A stretch of 64,000 nucleotides of DNA. Source: Amyloporia xantha. Its lineage: Eukaryota > Basidiomycota > Agaricomycetes > Polyporales > Adustoporiaceae. The translations under genes and the position numbers were made by a program. The notes beneath the pieces were generated by a model, which was not told where the DNA came from, searched no databases, and saw only the letters and a list, made by a program, of their open reading frames with translations. The stretch lies in assembly GCA_036971615.1 (NCBI GenBank), contig JAYKKR010000046.1, positions 179,295 through 243,294 on the forward strand, in the 5' to 3' direction. Positions 2,297-30,170 of this stretch are shown here, piece after piece. Numbering within the stretch: position 1 is the stretch's first letter; each line of letters starts with the position of its first letter.

Positions 2297-5078
2297 CTAT
2301 GCGGACGATGTGCCGCGCTGTGAGTCCTCCCCCTGCTGTTCTCCACCAGTCGCAATTTTGTGAACATCCGCGGCCTGGATTGAAACTCGCGTCACCGCGG
2401 TCGTGCTTGGATCCCGTGTTTGAACACTGTCCTGGCTGATGTTGCTCGCGAGGGCGGCGGTAGAAGTCGCGCGCGAAGCCGCGCTTTGGAACAAGGGCTC
2501 TGGCACATAGGCCCGTCGAGCGCTGAGGTCCAGGACTTGCTTGCGGATGCCCTCCATCTGCCCCGCGTACCCGTCAATCTGCGCAGAGATGGTGTCCAGC
2601 GAGGCTTGCATGCTCGATGCGTTGAGGGACTGCTGCACCTTCTTGAACTCCTCGCGAAGGTTGATGATTGACGCTTGGAGGTGCTCGGGCTCGATGGAGG
2701 CGACCGCGCTGTTCAGTGCGTTGACCTGCGCACTTACCGTCTCGACGCGCGTGTCGAGATTCTCCATGGACTCTTCCATGTTCTCCTGTTGCTCCTCCAC
2801 CTGCAAGACGCGCGCCTCGATAGCGCTCCCAGCAACCTCGACCGCACCCATGCGCTCGGTCAAGCTCTCGAGCAGGACACGCGCCTCGCCCGTGCCCCCG
2901 CAACCTCCACTGCCGCCAAGCGCTCCGTCAAGCTCGCGACATCCTCCTCATAGTCTCCAAACGATGTTTGGACCTTCTCCATGAGGAAGTCCCTGAGCTG
3001 CACGGCAACTTCGGTGACCGTGTCTTCCATCTTCTCCAGGGGCACTATGGCAGCCTCATGCCTCCTCGCGATGTCCTCGAGCATGGCGACCTTTTCTTGC
3101 AAGGCCACGACCGTCTCCTTCAGCTGCGCGGTCTCCGTTTGGTCCTTGGCGAGCTGCTCGTGGGAGGCCTCGGAGTGTGTCTCGCGCGCGCGATGGGCCT
3201 CCTGGTTGGTCTCCGCAAGACCGCGGTCCTCCTCTTCGCGCGCAATGGGACTTTGCTGCGGCTCGTCGAACCTTTCGAGTTGGTGATGCTCCCACTGGTT
3301 CTCCTGGTCCTTGAGGTAGACGTAGGCGGGCGGTGTGGGGTCACGGCGAGATGGCGCGGTCTTGGGCTTCTTCGCGCGGCTGGGCCCTGCAACTGGCTCT
3401 ACTGGGTCCTCGGCGTCGATGTCGAGCGGCGGTGAGGTGCGCTCAAGGCGACTGTCTCGTTTTGGCCGCGTCTTCTTCACCGCACCGCGAGTTGGTTTGC
3501 CGGCGGTTTTCTTCGCCTGAGCCAACTCGGCCTCATACTCCTCGAATAGCTGGCCGTTGGGGAGTATGTTCTTGTTGTCACTGTTCTGGTGCAAGAAGCC
3601 CAGGTCTTTCACCCAGACGGTCCATGCCGGCGGCGCAACCTTGTCGCGGATGCATTTCTGCGCGTATTCTTGAAACGCTTTTGCGGTGTCCGTCGCGGTC
3701 TGGTGGCCAGTGATCGCCTTGCCGTTGGGTCGCCGAGGAACCAGAGAGCACTTGCCCTTGTTGCGCGCGCAGTACATGCAGCGCCCGAAGTGTGATGTCG
3801 CGACCATGCACACCTTTTTGGCCTGCGCGCATACACCACAGCTGACGACCTACAGACCAGCAGGTGAGCGTAAAACAATCGCGACGATGCAATGACTTAC
3901 AGATTTCACTGCTACTGCAGACGCCTCTTCGATCCTTGCAGCCTCTGCAGCGGCCCTTGTGGTGTGCTCAGGCTGCTTCTCCTTGGTGCGTGCGGACCGG
4001 CGCGGCGCATTCTTGCCTGCGGTCGTCTTCTCGCCGTTGCGCGGAGGCGGCGCGTCCTCCTCGTCCTCGTCGTTGTCCTCCTCCTCGTCCTCCTTGTCCC
4101 CATTCTCATCGTCCTCCTCTTCTTCCTCGTCGCGTCCACCCACCACTTCCACCTCCACCTCTTCCTCACGTGCCCGCTTCTTGCCTTTTGCATTTGACGG
4201 CTTCTTTTTTCAGGTAGCGGCGGCACCCTCACACAATCCAGAACGATTGGACTGTCGTCCGAGTCGACGAGCGGCCTCTTCAGGGATGGCCGGACAACCG
4301 GGCGCTTCATGCGAGGGGGCGCATTTACTGGGGGCAACGCGAACCGCGGTTTTGTCCTCTTGGGCTGCTGTGTTGTCTCCATAGAGGCCGCGGTGGGCTG
4401 CGCTGTGGGTGCCGCTGGTGGGGGTGTGCGCGATTGGGTGGCAGCGTCTGCCTGAGCGGAGGGCTTTGCTGCCTTGCTCTTCGCGGTCTCGCTGTCCTGG
4501 TGCGCATCCGACTTCCGTTTCTGGACAGGGACGCGCGACGTCGATGCTTCCGGCGTCGGAGCTTGCGCAAGCGTCTCGCGCGCCGCTGGAGGAGCTCCTG
4601 CTGTGAAAGATGTTAGCATTTGTCAGTGGCCTCGACAACTGACATGCACTGTGCTTACCTCTCTTGGCCCACCACTGATCGTTCCCCAGCTCCACCTCCT
4701 GAGTTGGCCCAGGGATGACGAAGTTCTTCATGCCGCTCGAGGAGATGCGAGGATCGTCGACTCTGATGTTGCGGAGGTCGGCGCCGTTGCGAGAGTCGGC
4801 GTACTCCCTGAGTGCGCTGCACAGCAACATAGGCACGCGCAGAGACCCGCGCACATCCCGGGAGCGTCGCGGAACGCGTGCCAGCCCTTTTTCTAGAAAT
4901 GAAAAAGATGTTAGCTGTTCTCATATGAGTGGCTGCTATGTACTCACAAACTCGGAGTAGAAGGACTCCTCGTAGAGCACGTAGCCTTGTGTGCCCGGGG
5001 CGGGCGCGCAGCGAGCGCGGCCGCCATACGCGCGGTCGCGGTGTCGATGGTGAGCTGGCGGACGACGGCGTCGGACAT
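2297..5078 (-). CDS. Zn2Cys6-like zinc-cluster, coiled-coil protein (three apparent frameshifts)
   Basis: Four exons fit: 5078-4948, 4892-4659, 4600-3901 and 3849-2297, with canonical donors GTGAGT, GTAAGC and GTAAGT. Exon 2 encodes a compact domain (KKGWHAFRDAPG to ELGNDQWWAKR) that I do not recognise. Exon 3 is proline/serine-rich, then strongly acidic. Exon 4 opens with CGVCAQAKKVC and CMYCARNKGKC, spacing C-x2-C-x6-C-x9-C-x2-C-x6-C, which is the fungal Zn2Cys6 layout. It sits mid-protein rather than at the N-terminus. About 350 residues of coiled coil follow, with a duplicated SLTER..AVEVAG block. The frame breaks at about 5000 (CCCC), 4206 (A6) and 2890 (G5), each cured by one more base of the run. 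Probably a DNA-binding or scaffold protein; function unknown. Confidence 0.6.
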
Positions 5079-17412: not shown

Positions 17413-18038
17413 AGTGCTGATGTGAGTGCATGTAGCTGCTATCGGGCTCGAGAGAAGCTCCAGTATCCCCCGTTCTCCTCTGCAAATTGCTCTTGGGCAG
17501 CAATCTTCGGCATGGTTCAGCAACCCGAGCTCTTATGGCAGGCCTGGGCACCGAGCACTCTAGGTGAGTTCAGCACCATTGAGGAGCTTTGGCACAGTTG
17601 GACCGAGGGTGCGCAAGTTGAGGGTGTCGGCCGGAAACCGCCGCTGCGCGACGTTGAGAAAGAGTGGGGTAGCCGAAAGAACAAGATGCCGAATAAGGGC
17701 CACCAGCCGTGCTGGAGGCCACGCAATAACGACGCCGTGAGTTTGACGATGCTATGCTGACTTTTTGATCACTGACTTTCCACCAGGTGAGACAGCGTTG
17801 GTCGCAATATAACTTCTTCATCACCCACATTGAACGTGCGATCGACCTCGGCAAAACCGCATCTGAGGCCGTCGCAGACCTCGAACGTGAGCGCGGGTCG
17901 TGCTCTCTGTGCCAGCTTCGCAGGGAGCTTCAGACGAAGAGGAAGCCGAAGCCTGCCACTGCCGACATCTCTGACATGCATCAGCAAAACCCAACATTTT
18001 CCTTAAGGTTCTTTATCTGTATTATTGGTCTGAAATAA

Positions 18039-18472
18039 GAGTGTCAGATCGTCAAGACTTTCAGAAAAGTCCAATGTGAATTGGGATCGTTCTTAATTCT
18101 CTTACATCTTGCTGTATAAGAGTATTCAGATTGTAAGAAATTATTGTCAATTTGACACAAAAGAAACTAAGGAGGAAAATGGGTGTATAAGAAATAATAA
18201 GACTATAATACAGATTGTAAATGGGAGGAGTCAATTGTCAGTATGAAGTTCAGAGCAGAAAGTAGATAAGAATGTAAGACATATGTATATATTTAATTCT
18301 GAAGGGTCAATAGAATAACCTCAGGACACAAAGATAAATTGAATTCATCAAGGAAGGTTCAATTCATAGAGATAAGACAACACAGAATTTCAGACAATCA
18401 TAATTTTTTAAGATCAGCAAGTCAGTAAGTAGTACATGAATCAATACTTTGTAAGACATAAGGCCCACACAA
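18039..18472. repeat. TCTTA/TAAGA-rich subterminal region of the second Plavaka element
   Basis: An AT-rich stretch just past the transposase stop. TAAGA or TCTTA words recur at 18038, 18095, 18114, 18135, 18187, 18198, 18267, 18275, 18371 and 18452. Clustered short repeats next to the ends are typical of CACTA-superfamily transposase-binding regions. The exact end was not found. Confidence 0.5.
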
Positions 18473-20262
18473 TTAATGTAGGATCTCAAAAGCATGGTGA
18501 TCTGCATACTTGTTGATATAAAAGGATGTAAAGGTATCCAAGGAATTGTAATGTTTAAGATTATTTGGAACCCGACGTCTGCCATAGACGCCAATCAGAT
18601 GGGCAGCTCGGATGATTGAGTCCACAGGAATGACGGATACTTGGGGAAGACCACGCCTACATCTCGCCGGACGCACGATCCACATTCCAGTGTCTTCGTC
18701 TACTTCGTCGCAAACACGTTCAAACCAACGTACAAGTGCGGAAGGGTATTCCACACCATTGAGCTTGAATGAGAAGAACAGGAGGATGCGGACGACAAAG
18801 AAACTGTCGCGCGTTTCACCCCTCTGATTATGTTTTACCAGCGCGCAGTCAAAGCGGGCATGGGCTGTTTTAAACCAGCGCGGAGTTGCGCGGATGTGCT
18901 CCCGGCGCATTCCACCAATACCGGAAGGGTCACTAGGTGCGTAGAAGGTTGCAGCGGCCGAGTAGAAGACATTAATCTTCTGATTATAGGGGAGTACAGG
19001 ACATTGAGAGAGCGGCACAACGAATCCAAGTAGCGGCTGCTCGGGGTTTCGCAAGTCGAACAAGAACCGCCGTATGAATTCGCCTAGCTGAGGTTGATTA
19101 ATTTCAATAGCTAAGCCTGAAACCGACTTAGAATGTTTGCGTTCTGTCACGTAATGAATATCATCACACAACTGCGAAGACATAATCGTTGATGACTCAC
19201 GGATGGTTGCTGCCATTACAATGAATCCGCAGACAGTCGGACCAGCGATCACTCCCTCTGGTATAACTTCAGCTGGAAGATGTTCGACTTCAATATTGTT
19301 AATTGGTAGGTCATCACTTCCAGGCTCTGCAGCATCCCCGTTGCCGGCGTACTGATCGAAAAGTGCTATGTGACCAGGATCAATAAAATGATTGAACACA
19401 ATTTAGACGGTGGTACTTACGCTGCAGCGCGCGATATGCTGAGAGTAGACATGTTCCTTCTAGCATCCCCCGAGCTGAGAAATCAACACGTGCTGCGGCG
19501 AGCTTTTCTAGCCGCTGATTAGTCAACAACATCTGTCCGAGTGGCTCATAATGACTAGAGCGTCGATAGGGTTCCTTCACGGCCTTGATGTGTTTAGCCT
19601 CCGTGATTGATGAACAGAGTCCATTGGGAGCACCATATTCCCATATCATCAAGAGGTAGTGGCGAAGGGAATGCTGGCGGGGAAGATTGAATCCGGTTTC
19701 ACGTACACCAGAAGTCTCGAAGATAGGCCGGTAGTGGTAAAAACGTTCTAAAGCGTCTTGCAGGTCTTGAAGGGTCTTCTCGTTGTGAACGTTACGTCGC
19801 GCGATGTAGCAAAATTCGAGGAATGCGCGGATTGCACGGATCATATCCACTGGGACATAACCAGCGATCGCCGGCAGGTAAACCTATAAGTTAAAGTATT
19901 AAGTAATTGTGGCACAAGCCAGCGAGGTGTTCTGCACACCTTCATCAGTGCTTTAGAGTCGTCGCCGGTCCATTGCTTAAATCCACGGCCTTCATGAAAC
20001 CGCCGCAGACCTGCAAATGCAGGAACAGCCGCTATTCTAATACAGATATCAGCCGTGTCGAATTCCTTATATGGCTTGGTACTGACCGTCGATCTATGTC
20101 GGCCATGATCTTCTGGCCACCGCGTTTTCCATGCTCCAGCTCAAGATATTGTTCCACCCATTCAACGAGGTGATCTTTGAAGGTTCCCTTGATTAATTGG
20201 TGGAGCAGATCCGGAGAGAGAAGTTCATGGATGTCGGCTCTGGGAAAGTCGTTCGTGAATGG

Positions 20263-22251
20263 CTATATGAAAGGAAGTGTCAGCGCTCGTCATACGAAGC
20301 TAAAGAATGGAGTGTTGTTCAAGGAGAAAGTGAGACAAGATGATAAATTAGGAGAACCAGATTCGGAACGAAAGTCTTGTATGTGACAGCAGGGACGGTG
20401 ATGGAACACATGTGATCGCAGCGAGAGAAGTCGAAGTAGCGTGTGGGCAGTTGGCGTCGTGCAGGGGCTTGCGGGAGAGGACGATGTACTGTTGCATCGG
20501 ACTAATGCGAAGCCAATTCTTGCCGCTGTTCCTACTCGAGGGGCTGCCTGCATAGAATCTGTCCAATGTCGGCTGAGGAGAGCAGTATCGAAATCCGACC
20601 AGCGTGTCATTCCGCAATCGGTCGTTTCGGTCATTAGCCACCTGACATCCAAGGATGTCTTCAGGTTTCGGAGGTCGAGAGCGTCCTGTGCATCGGGCCA
20701 CGGCGACGCATGGCCACCGCTCATGCATACTATCAAGGCCGCCGCCGCTCACTGCTCGCGCCACTCATAGCGAGGATGCGGCGGACCCACGCCTTCTCGT
20801 AATGGGCCTTGATACTGCCTTCCTCCGGTATACTCGCCCTGTCGTGCTCTAATAAGTATACCCGCTGAATCCCAGGAACTCCGCGCAGGCTGATCGAATT
20901 CAACATAGTGTTCTCCAGCTGGTGCAGGAAAATGTCTTCCTCTGCGGTGTCCATACCGTCCTCGTCCTTGTCAGTGCCACCTAGGACGCGACAGCGAATG
21001 ATGAGCTTTTCGGAGTTATCTTCGCTCCAGATGACGAATAGGTCAGTTTTGAAACTTTCCGCGATCCGTCCGGCGACATAAGACATGGTCAATTTGCGAT
21101 CAATCATCTTCGCGCGATCCAACTCCAGCCGCGGTAACCAGGGAGATTGCAGATGGAGCTTTGTTCCACTTCTTCATCAGGGATGGCAAAGAATGATTCC
21201 ACGAAGACGCTGTCCTCCTCGATGATAGTAGAACTGGGGTCAGGAGCGTACCATATCTCGACGGCGGCAGTGACTGTGCGAAGCGATGTATAAGCCAATT
21301 CTTGTTGTACGCCATTCGCGAGAATCTGATCCTTGGCGATTTCGGGTTCGAGATATACTGAAAGCGAAGGCATTTTGAGGTTTGTTGCCACATGATGATT
21401 TCCTTCAGGCGAGGGACACCCAAGGTAATGTTCTTGCTGGAGACACCTGCGTAGTGGAACGTGTTCAAGGTCATCTGCGTAGCTGGCTCTCCAATCAACT
21501 GCGCCGCCAATGTCCCACACATCTCACCGGGATGTGCGAGAGACTGATTGAATTTTGCCTCGATCTCTCCCAATACCCATTCAACCGCCTCCCGGTTAAG
21601 ATGGAATTTCTCCAACACCTGCTGAGCAGCAAAGGTGGCCCGCAAATGTATACGGAACTTCAAAGTGGCATTGTTCTGAGTCTCGTTGCTAAAGGACGTG
21701 TCGCTCGCCACGAACGACGACCGGCCGGTTTGCTAGATCACGGACAGAGTCGATAATATAGGCAGGGTCGAGATCGCTTGGCTTTCGTCTGTCGATATGG
21801 AAATGTTGAATAGCATTTTGAACAATCCGCTGTAGGTTGACCGGAAGATGGTGTGGAATACTAGGATCCTGGCGACGGAAGACAAACTCGCGCAGTAATC
21901 GTCTGTCCTCGACGAGTTGTAGATATTCCTCGTCCAGCTTTGCCTGAAGTTCTAAGGAACTGTTGTCTAAACCAACTTGAAGGACCCCAGGGAGGAAGCC
22001 ACCAGACAGGTCGGTAACGTCCACTCGATAGTTATGTTCAAATTCCCGATTGTTCAAAGCGAATGTTTCTATATTCTAGCGCTCGATGAGCGCTCCGGTT
22101 GCATGTTCAGGGAATGAACCTCACCATGGACAGGACATTCTGCAGAGGTCGTGCTACCGAGGTGCGCGATTGAAACTTGACATTGGTCTTCATCCGCGCA
22201 CAGGATACCAAAGACAAATACAAAAGAAAGGGCTGCGAGACGGGTACTTAC
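20263..22251 (-). other. Oversized transposase intron containing host-gene sequence
   Basis: The donor GTAAGT follows the codons for GIVGDIV at 22252. The acceptor CATATAG precedes CCATTCACGAACG at 20262, and PFTNDFPRADIHELL resumes in phase. Other introns of this gene are 50-70 nt; this one is 1,989 nt. The host insert occupies about 20784-22100. The remaining 0.5 kb at 20263-20783 and the short 5' part are not recognised. Confidence 0.8.
20784..22100 (-). pseudogene. Fragment of RNA polymerase II largest subunit (RPB1)
   Basis: RPB1 is the catalytic subunit of Pol II. About 430 residues of its central part are present: [103 protein letters not shown] (bridge/trigger-loop region), [50 protein letters not shown] and NTMLNSISLRGVPGIQRV. 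It ends abruptly after GSIKA-HYEKAWV. A TAG at 22078-22076 replaces the Gln of ERQNIET. Frame breaks occur near 21700, 21392 (AAT reduced to AT in the KEIINVATN codons) and 21165. It lies in sense orientation inside the transposase intron and is not a working subunit gene. Confidence 0.93.
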
Positions 22252-22355
22252 CACAATATCACCGACGATACCATAATCATCCCATAAGACACCGAGTTCG
22301 AGTTCTTCCACCAATATATCTGTGTGAGCACGTGATCTTCGTCCACATTGAGCAC

Positions 22356-22388
22356 CATCTAGGTCAGTACTTCGTGCTGTGCATCTAG
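22356..22388. repeat. 26-bp duplication in transposase coding sequence
   Basis: CATCTAG occurs at 22356-22362 and again at 22382-22388. Removing one 26-bp period rejoins the transposase frame (YLDG-AQCGRRSR). The period is not a multiple of three, so the copy disrupts the gene. Confidence 0.7.
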
Positions 22389-23919
22389 ATAATTGTCGGC
22401 ATGAACAGAGTGAGCGGACAAAGAGTGGTGTAGCGCGCACTTCGGACACCATCCCTGCACAATACAAGCCAGGAGCGCTTGTTCGGGATAATCTGCGATG
22501 TAGGGACCGAGACCATATATGATGCGTCGAAAGTGTCCATCGGCACAGCGGACAATCTCAGGTGTTGTCATCCCAGGCTTCAAGGACTCGGGTATTCTTG
22601 AAAGAGAAGAATGGAATAGTTGTCGGCGAAATTTGCGGAATCGGACATCACCAGCATATTCCCTATCAGCTGTACGGAGTATGAGTCCAGCAAATCGACG
22701 CATGTCATAAAGTGAATGCCTACTCTTTGGAATTGCTAGAAACCCAATCAATGTGAGAGCGTCACGATGAGCACGCCGGACGTTATTATGGGTATTGCCA
22801 ACGCCGAGATACAGCGGGTAGTATTCATTCTGCCCAGTTGCAACTGAGACAGTCGTCTTATCGCTCCCGAGTATCAGCGGAACGAACGCGCATCCGTGAG
22901 TGTTTGGATCACGGGCAATGGTATCCTGTAGAAAAGTTGTAATGAGATGTATATTCACGACATGCCAGTGCTAGACACTGACCCCTTGTCTCCATGCCCA
23001 GTCTCCCGACATGAAGTTCTTCACTTCGCGGTGTTCCAATTCGTCAAAGACGCGGACCGGACAATAGTCTATCTCGCCATCGAAATCTGGGTTTCCGATC
23101 ATTTGCTCCGCTACTAGATGTGGGTCTCGGAAGAAGACGTCGAATTTTGATAGCATCCATGGTGGTACATTGTCTTCGGGAATCTCTCCTTCATACGACA
23201 TCTCGAAACTCTGCCATTTGACATCACCGAGCTTCGTGCTGTCAATAGTGTTGTATAGATCGTTTGTATTTATGAACGGCGGAGCGTCATTGTGTTTCAG
23301 GAGCGATGCTGCCCAGAGCTCCATGATAAAATCCACGTTTGGTGCAGACATCTGCGCCTTCTTGAAAAGGAATTCCGCTGCCTCATATTCGAGACGGTCG
23401 TTGTACGGACTCCAATCGTTTTGCGCAGGTACTGGTCTTGGAGGTGGTGGAGTGTCTGCTGCCAGATAGTTGCCGTCCTTGTCGCAGGGAGTTCCTAGCG
23501 CAGATCTTGTGAGTTTGTGAGTCTCGAATGCACTTACGAACAAGCATACCGTTTATGTACTGATGATACTCAAATCTCACGGGCTCAGCTGATTCCGAGC
23601 TGCTGCCATCCTCATCATCTGAGGCTTCTTCAACGAAGGGTCTATAGCGTCGTCGGTCCGCGCCATTCTGAGAGTCCTCAGAAGGTGGAATGTCTGCGAC
23701 TTGAATCAAGTTAGCGCGAGAAATTCGAAGCTCGGGGCGTCACCATACTCACAAGCTTCAGCATACCCGGGCAAGTATGCAGGCTGGAAGCCGTCCTCAC
23801 TCTCAAAGTGGTTGTCCTGAGGTGGGAACTCATCAGCTAAGCAAACGTCAGTGTCACCGCATCTGTTATAAACGGGACAAATGAACCTTCAATTCCTTGC
23901 ACATCTTCTTCGGCCTCGT

Positions 23920-24150
23920 CGTCTGCGTCTGCATCTTCGTCTGCGTCTTTGTCTTTGTCTTTGTCTTCGTCTTCGTCTGCATCTGCGTCTGCATCTTCGT
24001 CCTTATCCTCATCTCCGTCTACATCTACGTCTGCGCCTGCGCCTGCGTCTGCGTCTGCGTCCTCATCCGAGTACTCATCTGAGTCCCCGTCTCCGCGTCC
24101 GTCTACATCTGCCTGTTCATCTGCGTCTGCCTCTGCATCTGCATCTTCAT
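23920..24150. repeat. TCTGCG/TCTTCG-type microsatellite
   Basis: Hexanucleotide-like repeats of tctgcg, tctgca and tcttcgt, read on the minus strand as D-A-D-E runs within the acidic N-terminal part of the transposase. Confidence 0.85.
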
Positions 24151-24651
24151 CTTCATGACGCCGGTCTTCATCGTCGCGTGAGCTGGTGTCAGACCCAGCA
24201 TTGGAAACCTGCATGTCGTTGTCCATATCAAGGATTTGCTGATCCAAATTCATGTCGCTGGGCACAGCACCAGCATCTACCTCGTCTTGAGAGCGTGCAG
24301 CTTCGTCTTCCATTTCTACATCCCAAAGTCGAGATTGGGCGCGCGAGGTCTGACTGCGAATATCCTCACACACTATTAAGAGATTGAAGGTCAATATGGA
24401 TATATAAACAGACTTTGGGGCTATGATTCGAGACACTTACTCGATTCGCTAGATCCTTCTACATCATCCTCTGCTATGTTCATGACTCTGTCACCCTGCG
24501 GCGGAAGCTCGTTGGCTAGAATTGAATGTTTCGTTCGCGCGTGCTTCGTGCATCCTGACTGGCTTTTGAAGCGTCGGGTGCAGAAAGGGTATGGACAATC
24601 AAACGGACAGTTCTGATCCTTGAGACTTTTGAGAGTAGTAGATTTAGACAT

Positions 24652-24899
24652 AGTACCAGATTACAATGTTCAGTATCATGAGAGTATATCGACTGAGATT
24701 GCAGCGGCCGGCTTGACTCCACACAATTGATCCCAATTATCCTGTATTTGCGCACATTTTAGACGCCGGTTTCTTGCCAGCAACCATCGCAATTCGGACT
24801 TACTCACTGCGCTACGTCTTCTTCAAAACTTCGCATCCATCTCCTTCAAGTTTTCCAGAACCTCGCATCCATCTCGCCCCACTGTCCTGCTGATCAATC
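24652..24899. promoter_or_regulatory. Divergent upstream region of transposase and next gene
   Basis: This gap holds the 5' side of the Plavaka gene (minus) and the upstream region of the gene starting at 24900 (plus). The element boundary must fall in or near it. No defined motif was seen. Confidence 0.35.
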
Positions 24900-27800
24900 A
24901 TGCAGACTCGGTCGAAAAACGCGCAGCAGCACCCTGGCCAGGTTGACTTACCTGCACGTCGGGCCAGCAAAGCTGAGGTGCAAGCAGCCAAAAAGAAGAG
25001 CGCGGAAGCCAAGCAGGCGAAGGTTGATGCAAAGGAACGGGGCATTGACCGTATTGCTGGTGTAGAGAATAAGCTGGCGGCTCGTGATGAGGACAATGAT
25101 CGTCAGCGAGTGCTACGACCTACACGGAAGAGTAAACCCGGTCAGTCTCTAGCGTCTTCCTCGCATTGATATTACGCTCATTGTTCTTGAGCAAGGCCAT
25201 AAAAAGCGTGAAGTGTCGAGATCTGATAGCGATGATGAGCAAGGCGAACATGAGGAAGAGGCAAATCAATCTTCTGACAGTGATAGCGATCTTGTTATAC
25301 TGGCCCCTCCAAAACGACAGCGAAAGGCCGCTCCGCGCAAGTCGCCGCCGATTATACTTGAAGAGACTTCGTCGGGAGATGAGGCTGTCATGAGTCTGAG
25401 GAGACGGTCGAGCAAGGTTTCCCGGAAAGAGGTAGTTGAAGAAGCTGAGGCGCCGCCATCTCCGAAGAAACTATCAAAGAAGGCAGCAAGCAAGAGGAGA
25501 GTTCCTGTCGAAAGCGAAGTCGAGGAAAGTGAATTCGAGATGGTGCAAAGTGATGGCGAGTCGGATGCAGGTGATGTTGAGGCGGATGAAGGTGAGGGCG
25601 ACGAAAGTGAGGGCGACGAAAGTGAGGGCGACGAAAGTGAGGGCGATGAAAGTGAGGAGGATGAAGTCCCCATCCTTGATGCGACAGAGGAAGAGGATCG
25701 CCGAAGAAGAAAACCAAGAAGACCAATGTTTCGACGAGAGACGCAATAGAGGAAGCTCGCAGGCAAGCAAAGGGGAAGGGAAAGGAGGTCGTGAGCAAGG
25801 TGTCGAAGTCGAAGGGCAAGGAGGTCGTGAGCAAGGTGTCAAAGTCGAAGGCGAAAGATCATGATCGTGATACCGATATGGATAAGGCGCCCAAAAATAC
25901 CAAGTCCGTTCTGCTCCTATTTTCTTATCTCCGCACCATCACTGACCATGAATCGTTGCTCCCTGCTATCCCTGGACCAAACCACTCTATACTACCATAC
26001 ACTTAGGACTACGGCACCGAAAAAGAAGGCTGTTACGACCTCTATCAAGGAGTGGTCTACCAATCTCGCTACGGAATGGCAAGCTCCATCTAATAATAGC
26101 GCATCTGCCAGCCATCGAACTGCTTCCTCCTCTACTGCTATCTCAGGCTCACGCGGCACAGGCCCTCCGACTAGCACTGCCTCACAGAATCAAGGATCTT
26201 CTAAAAGCGGCAAGGGATCAGCCTCAAGTTCAAAAAGCGCGCCAAACGCGGGGGGGAATGTACAAGTCAAATTAAGTGACTTCCTCAGCGACAATGAAGA
26301 CGTCGAGCGGTTGGCCGCCTTGTCTAGTCCAGTGAAGGCTGTTGGAGCACGAAATGAAAACATGGTGAGTCGGCGTACTATACATGTACGTCCGGAGCTA
26401 ACGCCATGTTGCCTTCCAGAGGACGATCAAGATGGAAGAGGTAGATTTGACGCCACAACCCAAGCATTCACGATCCACGGCTAACGTATGGTTTTACATA
26501 CATAGGACACTATTATTCTACTGATAATGACTCTATTCTCAGATGGGCGTCAAGATTCATGAGGCCGGTGAGACTAGTGTCACACCGCAGCCAAAACGCA
26601 AGCGGAGTGCAGTTGCGGTGAGCCATTCATCATGGTAGTATATTTTCGCTGACTGATGGAATTTTCAGACTGCATTTGCAGATTACGACGAAGCCGCACC
26701 CCCGAAGAAGGTTCTTGCTAGACCTCGGGCGAAGTCCACCAAAGGTAGTAAGTCGGCTAAGACCACCGATCACTCTGACGGCGAGGACCACGATATGGAT
26801 GCCGCCAATGAAAACCAGTCCGATGTAGGGGGGGGCACGGTAGCCACTGCCAGAGGCCGCAAAGTCTGGACGAATCAGTCACTCCCCCCCCAGGCCCGGG
26901 GAAACATTACTGTTTGGCGTGGTAACTACGTGACAACGGCCACGGAAGATGTAGGTACAATGCAAAATCCCTGGGTCCCGGAGAGTCACCCCAAGTACGT
27001 GAGGAACCTGCAACTTATCTGGATCGCCATCTACGGCAAAACATATCAGCTGTTAACATTCGACGATCCCATCGAGGGTGTGGTGAGTCTACTGCCGCCA
27101 GTATCTACATTGCTCACTCGTTGACAAATGCATATATTTTAAGATGCATCAGCGGCTGTATGAGTGGCGCTCCGGCTTCGGTTCTGCTTCGTTGTCTGTC
27201 CTCGAAAGTCTCTTCAGAGACCTAGGCTACAAGACCAGCAAGACACGCGGAGAGCTTGCTGCTTATCTGCTTCACGGAAAGCGATTCTTATGGGAAGACG
27301 CGAGGGGCGATAACAAAGCGGTAAGCATTCGCAAGTACATCTGTTCTAGCTACCTTCGCATTAACGGACTACTTTAGTTGTGGAAGGGCCTTTTCCGATC
27401 GCCGTTCCTTATCCGCACGGCTGCCTATCATCTGGGCTTTATCTCTGGTAGGTGTGAGAAAGTCGGCGGTCTCTACGAAAAAGGAGAAGCCCGTCCTCCC
27501 ATTGGCGCCATTGCCCTAGCGGCTGCGGCTGTAAGTTTGTTATTTCAAGGTCATGTTCCTACACTCATCACGGTGGGTCGTTTTGCAGTGTGAACGCGCC
27601 CTTGTCCTATGGAAGGATCAAGCAATCGTTTATGAGGATGGAAAGACAAAAATACCGCTGTTGAGAAACCCGAAGACAGGCAAAGAGAGCAACATTGGGA
27701 CAGCCTTCAATGCCGGAAAATACAGCTCGAAAACCCAAGAGTATGCGATTTCCGTTGCGAAGCTCACGCCCAAGCGCCTGGAGAAGGTGGTCGATCTCAT

Positions 27801-27903
27801 GAAGGATTGCTATCGTAGTACAAACGGAAGGGAGGACGAAGCTTGGGAAGCCAGTGACGGGAGCGACGATCGTGCAGAACTCATCGAAGCTGACTCCGAG
27901 TAG
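24900..27903 (+). CDS. Nuclear-type basic/acidic protein with DUF6532-like C-terminal domain
   Basis: Nine exons fit: 24900-25140, 25196-25903, 26007-26364, 26420-26485, 26543-26617, 26669-27082, 27144-27320, 27378-27530 and 27589-27903, all GT-AG. The N-terminal half is low-complexity, with Lys/Arg stretches, SDSDSD, and a four-fold GDESE repeat at about 25593-25655. The folded C-terminal part runs from WTNQSLPPQARGNITVWRGN through LWKGLFRSPFLIRTAAYHLG and AIALAAAACERALVLWKDQA to LEKVVDLMKDCYRS. This order resembles the Agaricomycete DUF6532 family, whose function is unknown. One base is missing in the A-run near 25708 (KTKKTNVSTRDAIEEA needs five A, not four). I judge the gene intact and that gap a read error. 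Confidence 0.7.
25593..25655 (+). repeat. 15-bp tandem repeat, four copies, in coding sequence
   Basis: Unit gagggcgacgaaagt, in frame, encoding EGDES four times. The last copy has a synonymous change (gac to gat). Confidence 0.9.
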
Positions 27904-28339
27904 GTCAGTCGCCTCGTGAGTTTCTTATCTCTTTCTCGCGACCTATATCTCACGTCTACAGCGCAGGCCTTGTCTCGACTCGGTGGTATATACACGTCAT
28001 GGGGCTGCTTCGCAACAGGACCTGTTCGCTAGCGTGATTCAACTCACCGCGCGATTATTCTCCATCGTCGCCTTTGCTTCTCAACAAGCCTTGCATAGGC
28101 CTTATTGTCATGTCTTTCGGACAATGTCTCGTACTCATATTTCATTCATGATGCTGTATTAGATCGATCATCACGCAATCAGTCTCTTGTGATGTTGTGT
28201 CGTCATTTCGTTTGTTTTTACTTACATTTTTCTGCATTGTCTTAGATGCTCTGCACGTCGTTCTGCTGGCAGAACATTCCAAGGTTGTCTTGTGCCTCTT
28301 CTGGCCTTTGCGTGCGCAAAGCTTCTTATTATCATTGAC
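27904..28339. other. Downstream region of the DUF6532-like gene
   Basis: About 440 bases with no gene. AT content rises towards the TCTTA-rich block that follows. Confidence 0.5.
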
Positions 28340-28599
28340 CACTCTTAGACTCGATAAATTGCATGTCTTGATGTATCTTACAATTCTTAATAATTTCTTA
28401 TGACTCTTACGATCCGTCTGCGATCTGTCTGTTTTGTCTTATGACTCTTACGATCCGTCTGTTTTGTCTTATGAAGTCTTTATGACTGCATACTTTGTCT
28501 TAGCTCTATACAAGTAATGCATTTATTTGTATCAAGAACATAAGGGGGCATTTAAGAGATTAAGGTCACTTCAAAGCATGTTCCGGTAACATCAAGGTA
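28340..28599. repeat. TCTTA-rich transposon-like sequence, left part
   Basis: Contains a short tandem repeat of tcttatgactcttacgatcc with gtctg(tttt) at about 28398-28470 and many TCTTA words. It continues after the retrotransposon at 29676 and resembles the subterminal region at 18039-18472, so a non-autonomous Plavaka/CACTA-like element is plausible. Confidence 0.45.
28595..28599. repeat. 5-bp target duplication, left (AGGTA)
   Basis: AGGTA directly precedes the left LTR and recurs directly after the right LTR at 29671-29675. Confidence 0.9.
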
Positions 28600-28835
28600 T
28601 GTTAGAGGGAGTGCTCGGACGCACAGATCACGTGATTTAGGCGCCCATACGTCGTACATACCTGTGGTCTCTGCCTGTATCTTTCCTTAATCCGTGCTAT
28701 GAGTAGCCTTCGGTTAGGTGTCGGTGTATGTGTCGGGTTAGCTGTTTTGGCGCCTACTCTCCCTCCTGAGTTCCTAGGAGTATATCTGCTCTCTGAGCAC
28801 CCCTTTGCGTCTGTGTTTCCTCTATTCGCGCGACA
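28600..28835 (+). repeat. Left LTR
   Basis: Starts TGTTAGAGGGAGTGCTC and ends TTCGCGCGACA. It carries CTATGAGTAG and TATATCTG segments that could serve Pol II initiation, though no promoter is proven. Confidence 0.92.
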
Positions 28836-28853
28836 GGTTATGAGCCCCGCGCT
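28836..28853 (+). promoter_or_regulatory. Primer-binding site matching initiator-tRNA-Met anticodon arm
   Basis: The sequence right after the LTR, ggttatgagccccgcgct, is complementary to the initiator tRNA-Met anticodon stem-loop (GGGCUCAUAACC core). This is the half-tRNA priming used by Ty5 and copia-type elements rather than a 3'-CCA match. Confidence 0.7.
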
Positions 28854-29434
28854 CTCTGGCTTCATCCACCTCGATCTGCGCATGCAACCACATCCATTCT
28901 TCATCTACACTATCTGGGCCTACCAACTCATCTGTCTATCCTTCGATCTGCTCGATCTGCGATGATCTGCCCATCCACTACACCATTCTTCGCCTGCGTC
29001 CTCCCCTCGCTGTCCACACCTCAAGTTTTGTGTTGGCGAATCTTGCCGTTCGAGTCAAGTCTCCGGCCTCGATCTTCTGCGTCATAAGCTGAGTGTAAGC
29101 CTCTAGCTGAGTTGCTGAGAGCATCTCCGGCTTCGTACCGTTGCATCACTGCGCCATGCTTCATCTCTACCTCTGTGAGTTCCCACATGAGCTTGATGGT
29201 GATGGAATGGGTCGGGTGGTCTGTTGGGAGTTGAGAGGACTGTTTGGATTGGGTGGGAGCATTTGTGGAGGAGCATTGAGGTTGTTGGATTGCTGGAAGG
29301 GTTCTGGTCTGGACGGTCATTGGATTCGGTGGGAGCATTTTCTTCTTTGTTGTTTGGAGGATTGTATGTTTTCTTTTCTGTTGGTGGTTGTGAGGATTCC
29401 TTTTTCTGCTTCTGTGCATCCTCACAGGTGGGAG

Positions 29435-29670
29435 TGTTAGAGGGAGTGCTCGGACGCACAGATCACGTGATTTAGGCGCCCATACGTCGTACATACCTGT
29501 GGTCTCTGCCTGTATCTTTCCTTAATCCGTGCTATGAGTAGCCTTCGGTTAGGTGTCGGTGTATGTGTCGGGTTAGCTGTTTTGGCGCCTACTCTCCCTC
29601 CTGAGTTCCTAGGAGTATATCTGCTCTCTGAGCACCCCTTTGCGTCTGTGTTTCCTCTATTCGCGCGACA
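29435..29670 (+). repeat. Right LTR
   Basis: Same 236 bases as the left LTR as far as I can compare. It is followed by AGGTA at 29671-29675. Confidence 0.92.
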
Positions 29671-29675
29671 AGGTA

Positions 29676-30170
29676 TTCAGGGGTGAAAAGTATGCTGGTA
29701 AATATTTAAGAGATGTCAGCCATAATGCAGCAAGGCAGCAAATAAGACATTAAGAATGAGTCTTAGCTGTCTTGTCTGCGGTTGGCCCGATCTTGAATGA
29801 TCATTAAGGACATTCCAAGGACTCAAGAGAATTCTAAGAGTGCAGATCGTTCTTATTTAAGAACACCTCTGTCTTAATTAAGACCGAATCAGATGCCATT
29901 AAGACCGTCTTTCTTACATAGATTTTTCTATTAATTTCCTTATGTTCTGTAATAAGGGAGCTAAGGTTGCCTAAGGAAAAGTTGGGTTTTCCTGATGCAT
30001 GACTCCTGCCGCCAACGGTTGAAGCCATGCTGCACCTCGTGGGCCACACTCAGACTATGAGTATCATAGTAATAAAATTCACTGATATTTCGGTCCTAAT
30101 AGCTACAGTACATACAAACTAGACACATATCACTCCTTAGTTAACCTACTGAGCATATTTTACTGTCTTT
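29676..30170. repeat. TCTTA-rich transposon-like sequence, right part
   Basis: Continues the AT-rich block interrupted by the TRIM, with repeated ataagac, attaag and tcttaa words (about 29735-29930). No coding content. Confidence 0.45.

What the first reader, a model, noticed from the sequence alone, without database searches (positions are those of the whole stretch)
20263..22251. Host RPB1 fragment carried in sense orientation inside an intron of a Plavaka transposase gene
The transposase reads up to GIVGDIV, hits a GTAAGT donor, and resumes after a CATATAG acceptor with PFTNDFPRADIHELL. Between them lie nearly 2 kb in which about 430 residues of the Pol II largest subunit, including the bridge/trigger-loop region, are recognisable on the same strand. 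Other introns of the gene are 50-70 nt. Gene capture is well known for plant Pack-type and CACTA elements; a fragment parked in an intron, where it leaves the transposase mRNA unharmed, is a neat way to carry host DNA. Because it is transcribed in sense as part of the pre-mRNA, it could also be a source of small RNA or alternative exons related to RPB1.
Basis: partly seen in the sequence, partly recalled or inferred. Interest (0 to 1): 0.88.

Follow-up and report, generated by a model that had tools for sequence, protein, structure and literature searches.

The report
Transposon intron carrying host gene pieces
In a wood-decay fungus, a jumping gene carries a decayed piece of the cell's own RNA polymerase gene inside one intron of its transposase gene, and related copies carry pieces of other host genes in that same intron, so far always pointing the same way.

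Summary
The minus-strand gene 24651-18473 can be read as an open 1,227-residue Plavaka transposase with nine introns of 50-68 nt and one of 1,989 nt (22251-20263). That intron holds 1,315 bp of the host RPB1 gene (22097-20783; 95% identity, sense, frame broken). Nine siblings read have 49-74 nt there. Yet the wider idea gains support: of 29 related Plavakas with both flanking exons located, 14 have a 2-9.5 kb intron at this site. Thirteen of these hold host gene pieces (RPB1, mitochondrial PheRS, an E1-E2 ATPase, a Kre2-type mannosyltransferase, a bromodomain protein, a kinase, an unnamed gene), all in sense; one was not read. This intron looks like a recurrent cargo site. Splicing and the cause of the sense bias are inferred; no RNA data were available. 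New variant of transposon gene capture.

The parts
17979..29997 (-). PlavakaB-type element, ends CATCAG...CTGATG; second copy on contig C3
   Evidence: Shared with C3 over 17977-28600 (99.6%) and 29669-29997 (100%), flanks differ; ends fit those given for PlavakaB in PMC12730594 (passages)
18473..24651 (-). Transposase gene, modelled as 11 exons, 1,227 aa
   Evidence: Open splice chain found with the long intron demanded; PF18759 1-325, E 2.6e-127. Splice sites are predicted; no RNA evidence
20263..22251 (-). Expanded intron, 1,989 nt, GTAAGT...ATATAG
   Evidence: 49-74 nt at the same position in nine siblings read
20677..22142 (-). Nested MITE-derived element X', 1,466 bp, ends CAGAATGTCCTG... 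and ...CACAGGACGCTCTC
   Evidence: 5' end and an inner stretch match a ~585-bp repeat family; both ends fit that family
22143..22150 (-). 5' copy of the target duplication of X', GACCTCTG
   Evidence: 7 of 8 bases match the 3' copy; same pair in the C3 copy
20669..20676 (-). 3' copy of the target duplication of X', GACCTCCG
20783..22097 (-). RPB1 gene fragment, sense to the transposase, frame broken
   Evidence: 95% identity to C1:4110080-4111392; Rpb1 domains; 26 silent and 28 residue-changing differences, one 4-bp insertion, two 1-bp deletions
20263..20668 (-). Rest of the intron after X', about 400 nt, origin unknown
   Evidence: No genome match outside the two copies except near the acceptor and exon; no Pfam, PDB or own-genome protein match
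22151..22251 (-). Rest of the intron before X', about 100 nt
   Evidence: Only the donor end is shared with siblings

Best explanation
In one group of PlavakaB elements, an intron that is short in siblings has repeatedly received host gene DNA, while the transposase frame on either side could stay open. In the window copy the piece is an RPB1 fragment inside a nested MITE-derived element; whether RPB1 entered the MITE before or after the MITE reached the intron is not settled. In sibling lineages other host gene fragments lie in the same intron with no trace of that MITE in the stretches read. Likely working (inferred): insertions here are tolerated because the whole stretch is spliced out, and the cargo then spreads with the element. 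Sense-oriented gene bodies would be favoured because they have been selected to lack premature polyadenylation signals on that strand, so the pre-mRNA still reaches the downstream exons. Shown: anatomy, recurrence, orientation, presence in two separate copies. Inferred: splicing, tolerance and the cause of the sense bias.
For: Open 1,227-aa chain and one full Pfam match across the intron. Near-identical insert in a second Plavaka with other flanks. Nested ends with an 8-bp duplication, 7/8; in 10 of 11 MITE copies examined the duplication is perfect over at least 8 bp (which let the 3' end slide by 0-7 bases). Short intron, 49-74 nt, in all nine siblings read, among them C58, the best-scoring exon match after C3 (83%, tied in identity with C42:74425). 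Hand tally from coordinates: one search lists 68 downstream-exon matches; 34 were kept (64% identity or more over 54 residues or more), 34 dropped as more distant or partial. Of the 34, 29 pair with an upstream exon: 14 long, 15 short (nine read, six inferred from 222-254 nt between matches); 5 unpaired. Host pieces in 13 of the 14 long introns: RPB1 in 2; mtPheRS in 6; E1-E2 ATPase in 2; Kre2-type enzyme plus an unnamed gene in 2; bromodomain plus kinase in 1. All seven are sense. In the C16, C10 and C12 introns and the window remainder, Pfam at E 0.01 gave 0 matches in 68 antisense ORFs and 8 families in 74 sense ORFs. In four PheRS-bearing elements 115 nt of the exon before the intron vary at 6 sites with no residue change, while the first 330 nt of intron are 92-95% identical with 2-60 gap columns. 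None of the 14 downstream exons has a stop in the part matched.
Against: No RNA data; introns of 2-9.5 kb are unusual for such fungi (general knowledge). The C3 copy has an exon indel that breaks the frame, C22 has a stop in a downstream exon, and the C17 donor reads GTTAGT, so some cargo-bearing copies are probably dead. Expansion is not confined to this site: other Plavakas show wide gaps between matches elsewhere in the domain (C32, about 460 nt; C12:2485-2487k, about 1.7 kb), contents unread, and the bromodomain pieces of C13 and C34 may lie outside this intron. Seven events is few for the sense bias (2 in 128, two-sided); the strand-neutral check covered only three introns and the window remainder. 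The window copy shows no 2-3 bp duplication at the Plavaka ends.
Confidence: 0.72

Rival explanations
1. One-off accident: a Pack-type MITE carrying RPB1 jumped into a Plavaka intron; nothing special about that intron.
For: Own ends and target duplication.
Against: Thirteen of 14 long introns at this site carry host gene pieces from at least seven genes, and no trace of the MITE was found in the sibling intron stretches read. None of the 11 MITE copies examined carries cargo (554-590 bp), and no RPB1-bearing copy was found outside the two Plavakas.
Confidence: 0.15
2. Each fragment was copied directly into the Plavaka intron during break or gap repair; in the window the MITE was already there and was the place of repair.
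For: No RPB1-bearing MITE found elsewhere; other cargo lacks the MITE; the bromodomain and ATPase pieces begin at the same query base in the main match of each element and of the presumed source, as for single captures inherited by descent; only a few bases of shared sequence at the RPB1 junctions (read by eye).
Against: No capture junction shows a diagnostic scar, and both MITE ends are present as after an ordinary insertion.
Confidence: 0.35
3. Decay: dead elements collect insertions because the gene is no longer under selection.
For: Frame break in C3, stop in C22, weak donor in C17.
Against: The window copy can be read open throughout; 6 of 6 variable sites in the PheRS-lineage exon are silent; no stop in the matched part of any of the 14 downstream exons.
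Confidence: 0.14

Closest known systems
Pack-TYPE transposons (Pack-MULE, Pack-CACTA)
   Same: Host gene fragment between the ends of a DNA transposon without its own transposase, as in the nested X'.
   Different: Here nested in an intron of an element that encodes a transposase. Described as plant elements in the abstract of PMC8903248, with 370 Pack- elements reported for animals in PMC8277862 (both seen in the listing only).
Tgm-Express1 of soybean, a CACTA element (PMC1947982, abstract and passages)
   Same: Several host gene fragments with exons and introns lying in an intron; there they were alternatively spliced as extra exons.
   Different: There the element sits in an intron of a host gene; here the pieces sit in an intron of the transposon's own transposase, and repeatedly.
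CACTA elements of Chenopodium (PMC8978399, passages)
   Same: Related superfamily, captured gene fragments, regions said to be prone to capture; silencing camouflage is discussed.
   Different: The fragments there lay outside the coding sequence, in the 5' region.
Helitrons of Pleurotus ostreatus (PMC4289320, title and start of abstract)
   Same: Capture of gene fragments by transposons of a basidiomycete.
   Different: Rolling-circle elements, not a transposase intron.
TET/JBP-bearing Plavaka (PMC12730594, passages)
   Same: PlavakaB ends; an extra gene is carried.
   Different: An encoded gene with a proposed role, not broken fragments in an intron.

Membership tests
PlavakaB | Plavaka transposase domain | tested here: met
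   PF18759 1-325, E 2.6e-127
PlavakaB | Ends CATCA..TGATG | tested here: met
   CATCAG at 17979, CTGATG ending at 29997 (definition in PMC12730594, passages)
PlavakaB | 2 or 3 bp target duplication | tested here: inconclusive
   C3 copy TG/TG; window copy TG against CA (by eye)
Pack-TYPE element (nested X') | Ends of a DNA transposon family around a host gene fragment | tested here: met
Pack-TYPE element (nested X') | Target duplication of that family | tested here: met
   8 bp, 7 of 8 bases match
Pack-TYPE element (nested X') | Moved as a unit with its cargo | tested here: inconclusive
   No copy found outside the two Plavakas
hAT (parent of X) | 8-bp duplication and CAG-type ends (end motif recalled) | tested here: inconclusive
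   10 of 11 copies with a perfect duplication of at least 8 bp, but Zisupton also gives 8 bp (PMC12730594, passages), so this does not single out hAT
hAT (parent of X) | hAT transposase acting on these ends | not tested
   No autonomous partner was searched for

The most novel reading that the evidence does not exclude
The intron is a maintained cargo bay. Elements that hold sense fragments of genes the host cannot do without (RNA polymerase II, an H+-ATPase, PheRS, a bromodomain protein; essentiality is general knowledge) gain because small RNAs or DNA silencing aimed at the element would also hit those genes: a hostage strategy run from a spliced intron, so that the transposase itself pays no price. 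A camouflage idea of this kind is already discussed for captured fragments in plant CACTA elements (PMC8978399, passages); its seat in a transposase intron and the sense-only rule would be new.
Probability: 0.08. Interest if true: 0.9.

Novelty: new variant of a known kind. Interest (0 to 1): 0.65.

Why it matters
The Pack-TYPE elements that capture genes in plants are non-autonomous. Here elements that still encode a transposase, in the window copy with an open frame, carry host pieces in one intron, repeatedly and so far in one orientation. That gives a natural series (short intron, RPB1, PheRS, ATPase and others) for testing how captured DNA is tolerated, how long introns splice in a fungus with short introns, and whether captured fragments affect silencing of the element or of the host gene.

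Tried and rejected
A Helitron reading of the insert was considered (a hairpin followed by CTAA beyond the MITE end) and dropped when the matching MITE ends and the 8-bp duplication were seen. The ~400 nt after X' could not be identified. A splice search that rewards exon length strung RPB1 pieces in as exons; its scoring favours that, so it is not used as evidence, but it shows that open alternative exon chains exist on paper. C12 against C22 downstream exons, meant as a test of selection, gave 41 substitutions, 37 of them transitions, and a stop in C22, with no sign of constraint. The elements at C13:63k and C34:2094k, and those at C13:99k and C34:2076k, lie near bromodomain or ATPase matches but were left out of the long-intron count because the two flanking exons could not be paired; a C10-type donor stretch lies between the bromodomain and ATPase matches in the first two, so the bromodomain pieces there may lie outside this intron. 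Plavaka proteins of other fungi: 1 of the 120 listed (of 2,037 found) has a further Pfam domain (PF01031), which does not test introns. In the sense set one ORF of the list (L071:2-895) was left out, and window ORFs under 60 residues were left out of both sets. An earlier value of 48 nt for one sibling intron was a hand error in the boundary; one search gives 50.

Full report
Setting. The window is part of contig C41 of a 46.8-Mb genome. The protein of the host mitochondrial PheRS gene is 86% identical to that of Rhodonia placenta, with other Polyporales next in the list, so the host is most likely a polypore-type fungus.

The element. The region 17979-29997 is shared with contig C3 at 99.6-100%, with different flanks and a 1,068-bp stretch present only in the window. 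Its ends, CATCAG and CTGATG, fit those given for PlavakaB (PMC12730594, passages). The C3 copy has TG on both sides; the window copy shows no 2-3 bp duplication. A splice model with the long intron demanded gives an open protein of 1,227 residues with nine other introns of 50-68 nt and one Plavaka match over the full profile. One of those nine has a weak donor (GTTCAT), and no RNA evidence was at hand. The C3 copy has an exon indel that breaks the frame.

The intron. Between GIVGDIV and PFTNDF lie 1,989 nt. Nine siblings read at this site have 49-74 nt, among them C58, the best-scoring exon match after the C3 copy (83%). More distant Plavakas run through this part of the domain in one frame. 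So within this group the intron is shared and usually short, and the insert is later.

The RPB1 piece. Window 22097-20783 aligns to a gene on C1 with 1,257 of 1,317 columns identical; an open frame of 1,183 residues there ends in CTD-like repeats. The piece has one 4-base insertion, two 1-base deletions and 54 substitutions, 26 silent and 28 not. It is a decaying fragment. The C3 copy of the intron differs by 4 substitutions and 2 short indels.

The nested element. The bases just outside the RPB1 piece match two parts of a repeat of about 585 bp. Eleven copies of that repeat were examined: 554-590 bp, and a perfect duplication of 8 or 9 bp in 10 of 11, L018 being the exception. In the window the same ends stand at 22142 and 20677 with GACCTCTG and GACCTCCG outside, and the same pair in C3. 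About 285 bp of the middle of the repeat are replaced by RPB1, and about 160 bp before its 3' end are missing. No other RPB1-bearing copy was found in the genome, so the order of events is open.

The pattern. One search lists 68 matches to the exon after the intron. Thirty-four with 64% identity or more over at least 54 of 59 residues were kept; 34 more distant or partial ones were dropped. Of the 34, 29 could be paired with an upstream exon on the same strand and 5 could not. Fifteen of the 29 have short introns: nine read, six inferred from 222-254 nt between matches. Fourteen have introns of about 2-9.5 kb: C41, C3, C17, two on C55, C25, C23, C29, C10, C42, C16, C12, C22 and C32. C32 was not read. 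Host gene pieces were found in the other 13: RPB1 in C41 and C3; mitochondrial PheRS in C17, both C55, C25, C29 and C23, recognised by 86-88% identity to a host gene that was read and by weak Pfam and PDB matches; an E1-E2 ATPase that reads as a plasma-membrane H+-ATPase (name recalled) in C10 and, by DNA match, C42; a Kre2-type mannosyltransferase (PF01793) and an unnamed gene in C12 and, by DNA match, C22; a bromodomain protein and a kinase in C16. C17, one C55, C23 and C29 were read only for the first ~0.7 kb. The presumed sources of the ATPase, mannosyltransferase and bromodomain pieces were located by DNA match and not read; no source was found for the kinase piece, only a second copy on C42 upstream of another Plavaka exon.

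Orientation. All seven pieces run in the sense of the transposase. A strand-neutral check of the introns of C16, C10 and C12 and of the window remainder gave no Pfam match at E 0.01 in 68 antisense ORFs and eight families in 74 sense ORFs; two of the eight (CENP-Q, DUF7137) are weak and unrelated to the named pieces. Seven of seven has a chance of 2 in 128, two-sided.

Selection. In four PheRS-bearing elements 115 nt of the exon before the intron vary at 6 sites, all silent, while the first 330 nt of intron are 92-95% identical in pairs with 2-60 gap columns. On this small sample the transposase stayed under selection while the intron was long. Against this, C22 has a stop, C3 a frame break and C17 a donor GTTAGT.

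Limits of the cargo-site claim. Other introns of the long-intron siblings were not read. In other Plavakas there are wide gaps at other places of the domain (C32, C12:2485-2487k), of unknown content. The bromodomain pieces on C13 and C34 may lie outside this intron.

Mechanism. DNA-level capture is indicated for the ATPase, mannosyltransferase and unnamed pieces, which match genomic DNA in long single alignments although their reading frame changes along the way. Splicing of the long intron and the role of polyadenylation signals in the sense bias are inferences.

Literature. Searches of the held library showed no title or abstract start about host gene fragments in an intron of a transposase gene; two found no paper at all, some lists were cut (72 shows 8 of 55,330), and the library lacks most subscription journals. 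The nearest are Tgm-Express1 (PMC1947982, abstract and passages) and fragments outside the coding sequence of Chenopodium CACTA elements (PMC8978399, passages), where silencing camouflage is already discussed. A review of gene capture in plants (PMC13317346, word search and passages) does not use the word intron.

Noticed in passing
window 28601-29668: A 1,068-bp stretch absent from the C3 copy, flanked by the 8-bp direct repeat CAAGGTAT: a further nested insertion in this Plavaka.
   Followed up: partly
window 25153-27903, + strand: Opposite-strand ORFs in the right half of the element, shared with C3; the three ORFs scanned gave no Pfam match over the curated cut-off. Possibly a second transposon gene.
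   Followed up: no
L075:1653-2283 and 2524-3165: The ATPase cargo of C10 contains a segment of about 650 bp twice, 76% identical, so rearrangement went on inside the intron.
   Followed up: partly
L077 against L059: C12 and C22 downstream exons differ by 41 substitutions, 37 of them transitions (24 of them G to A or C to T in C22), perhaps methylation-related decay.
   Followed up: partly
G000:C12:2485069-2487741 and C32:72027-72492: Wide gaps between Plavaka domain matches at other places than the studied intron; contents unread.
   Followed up: no
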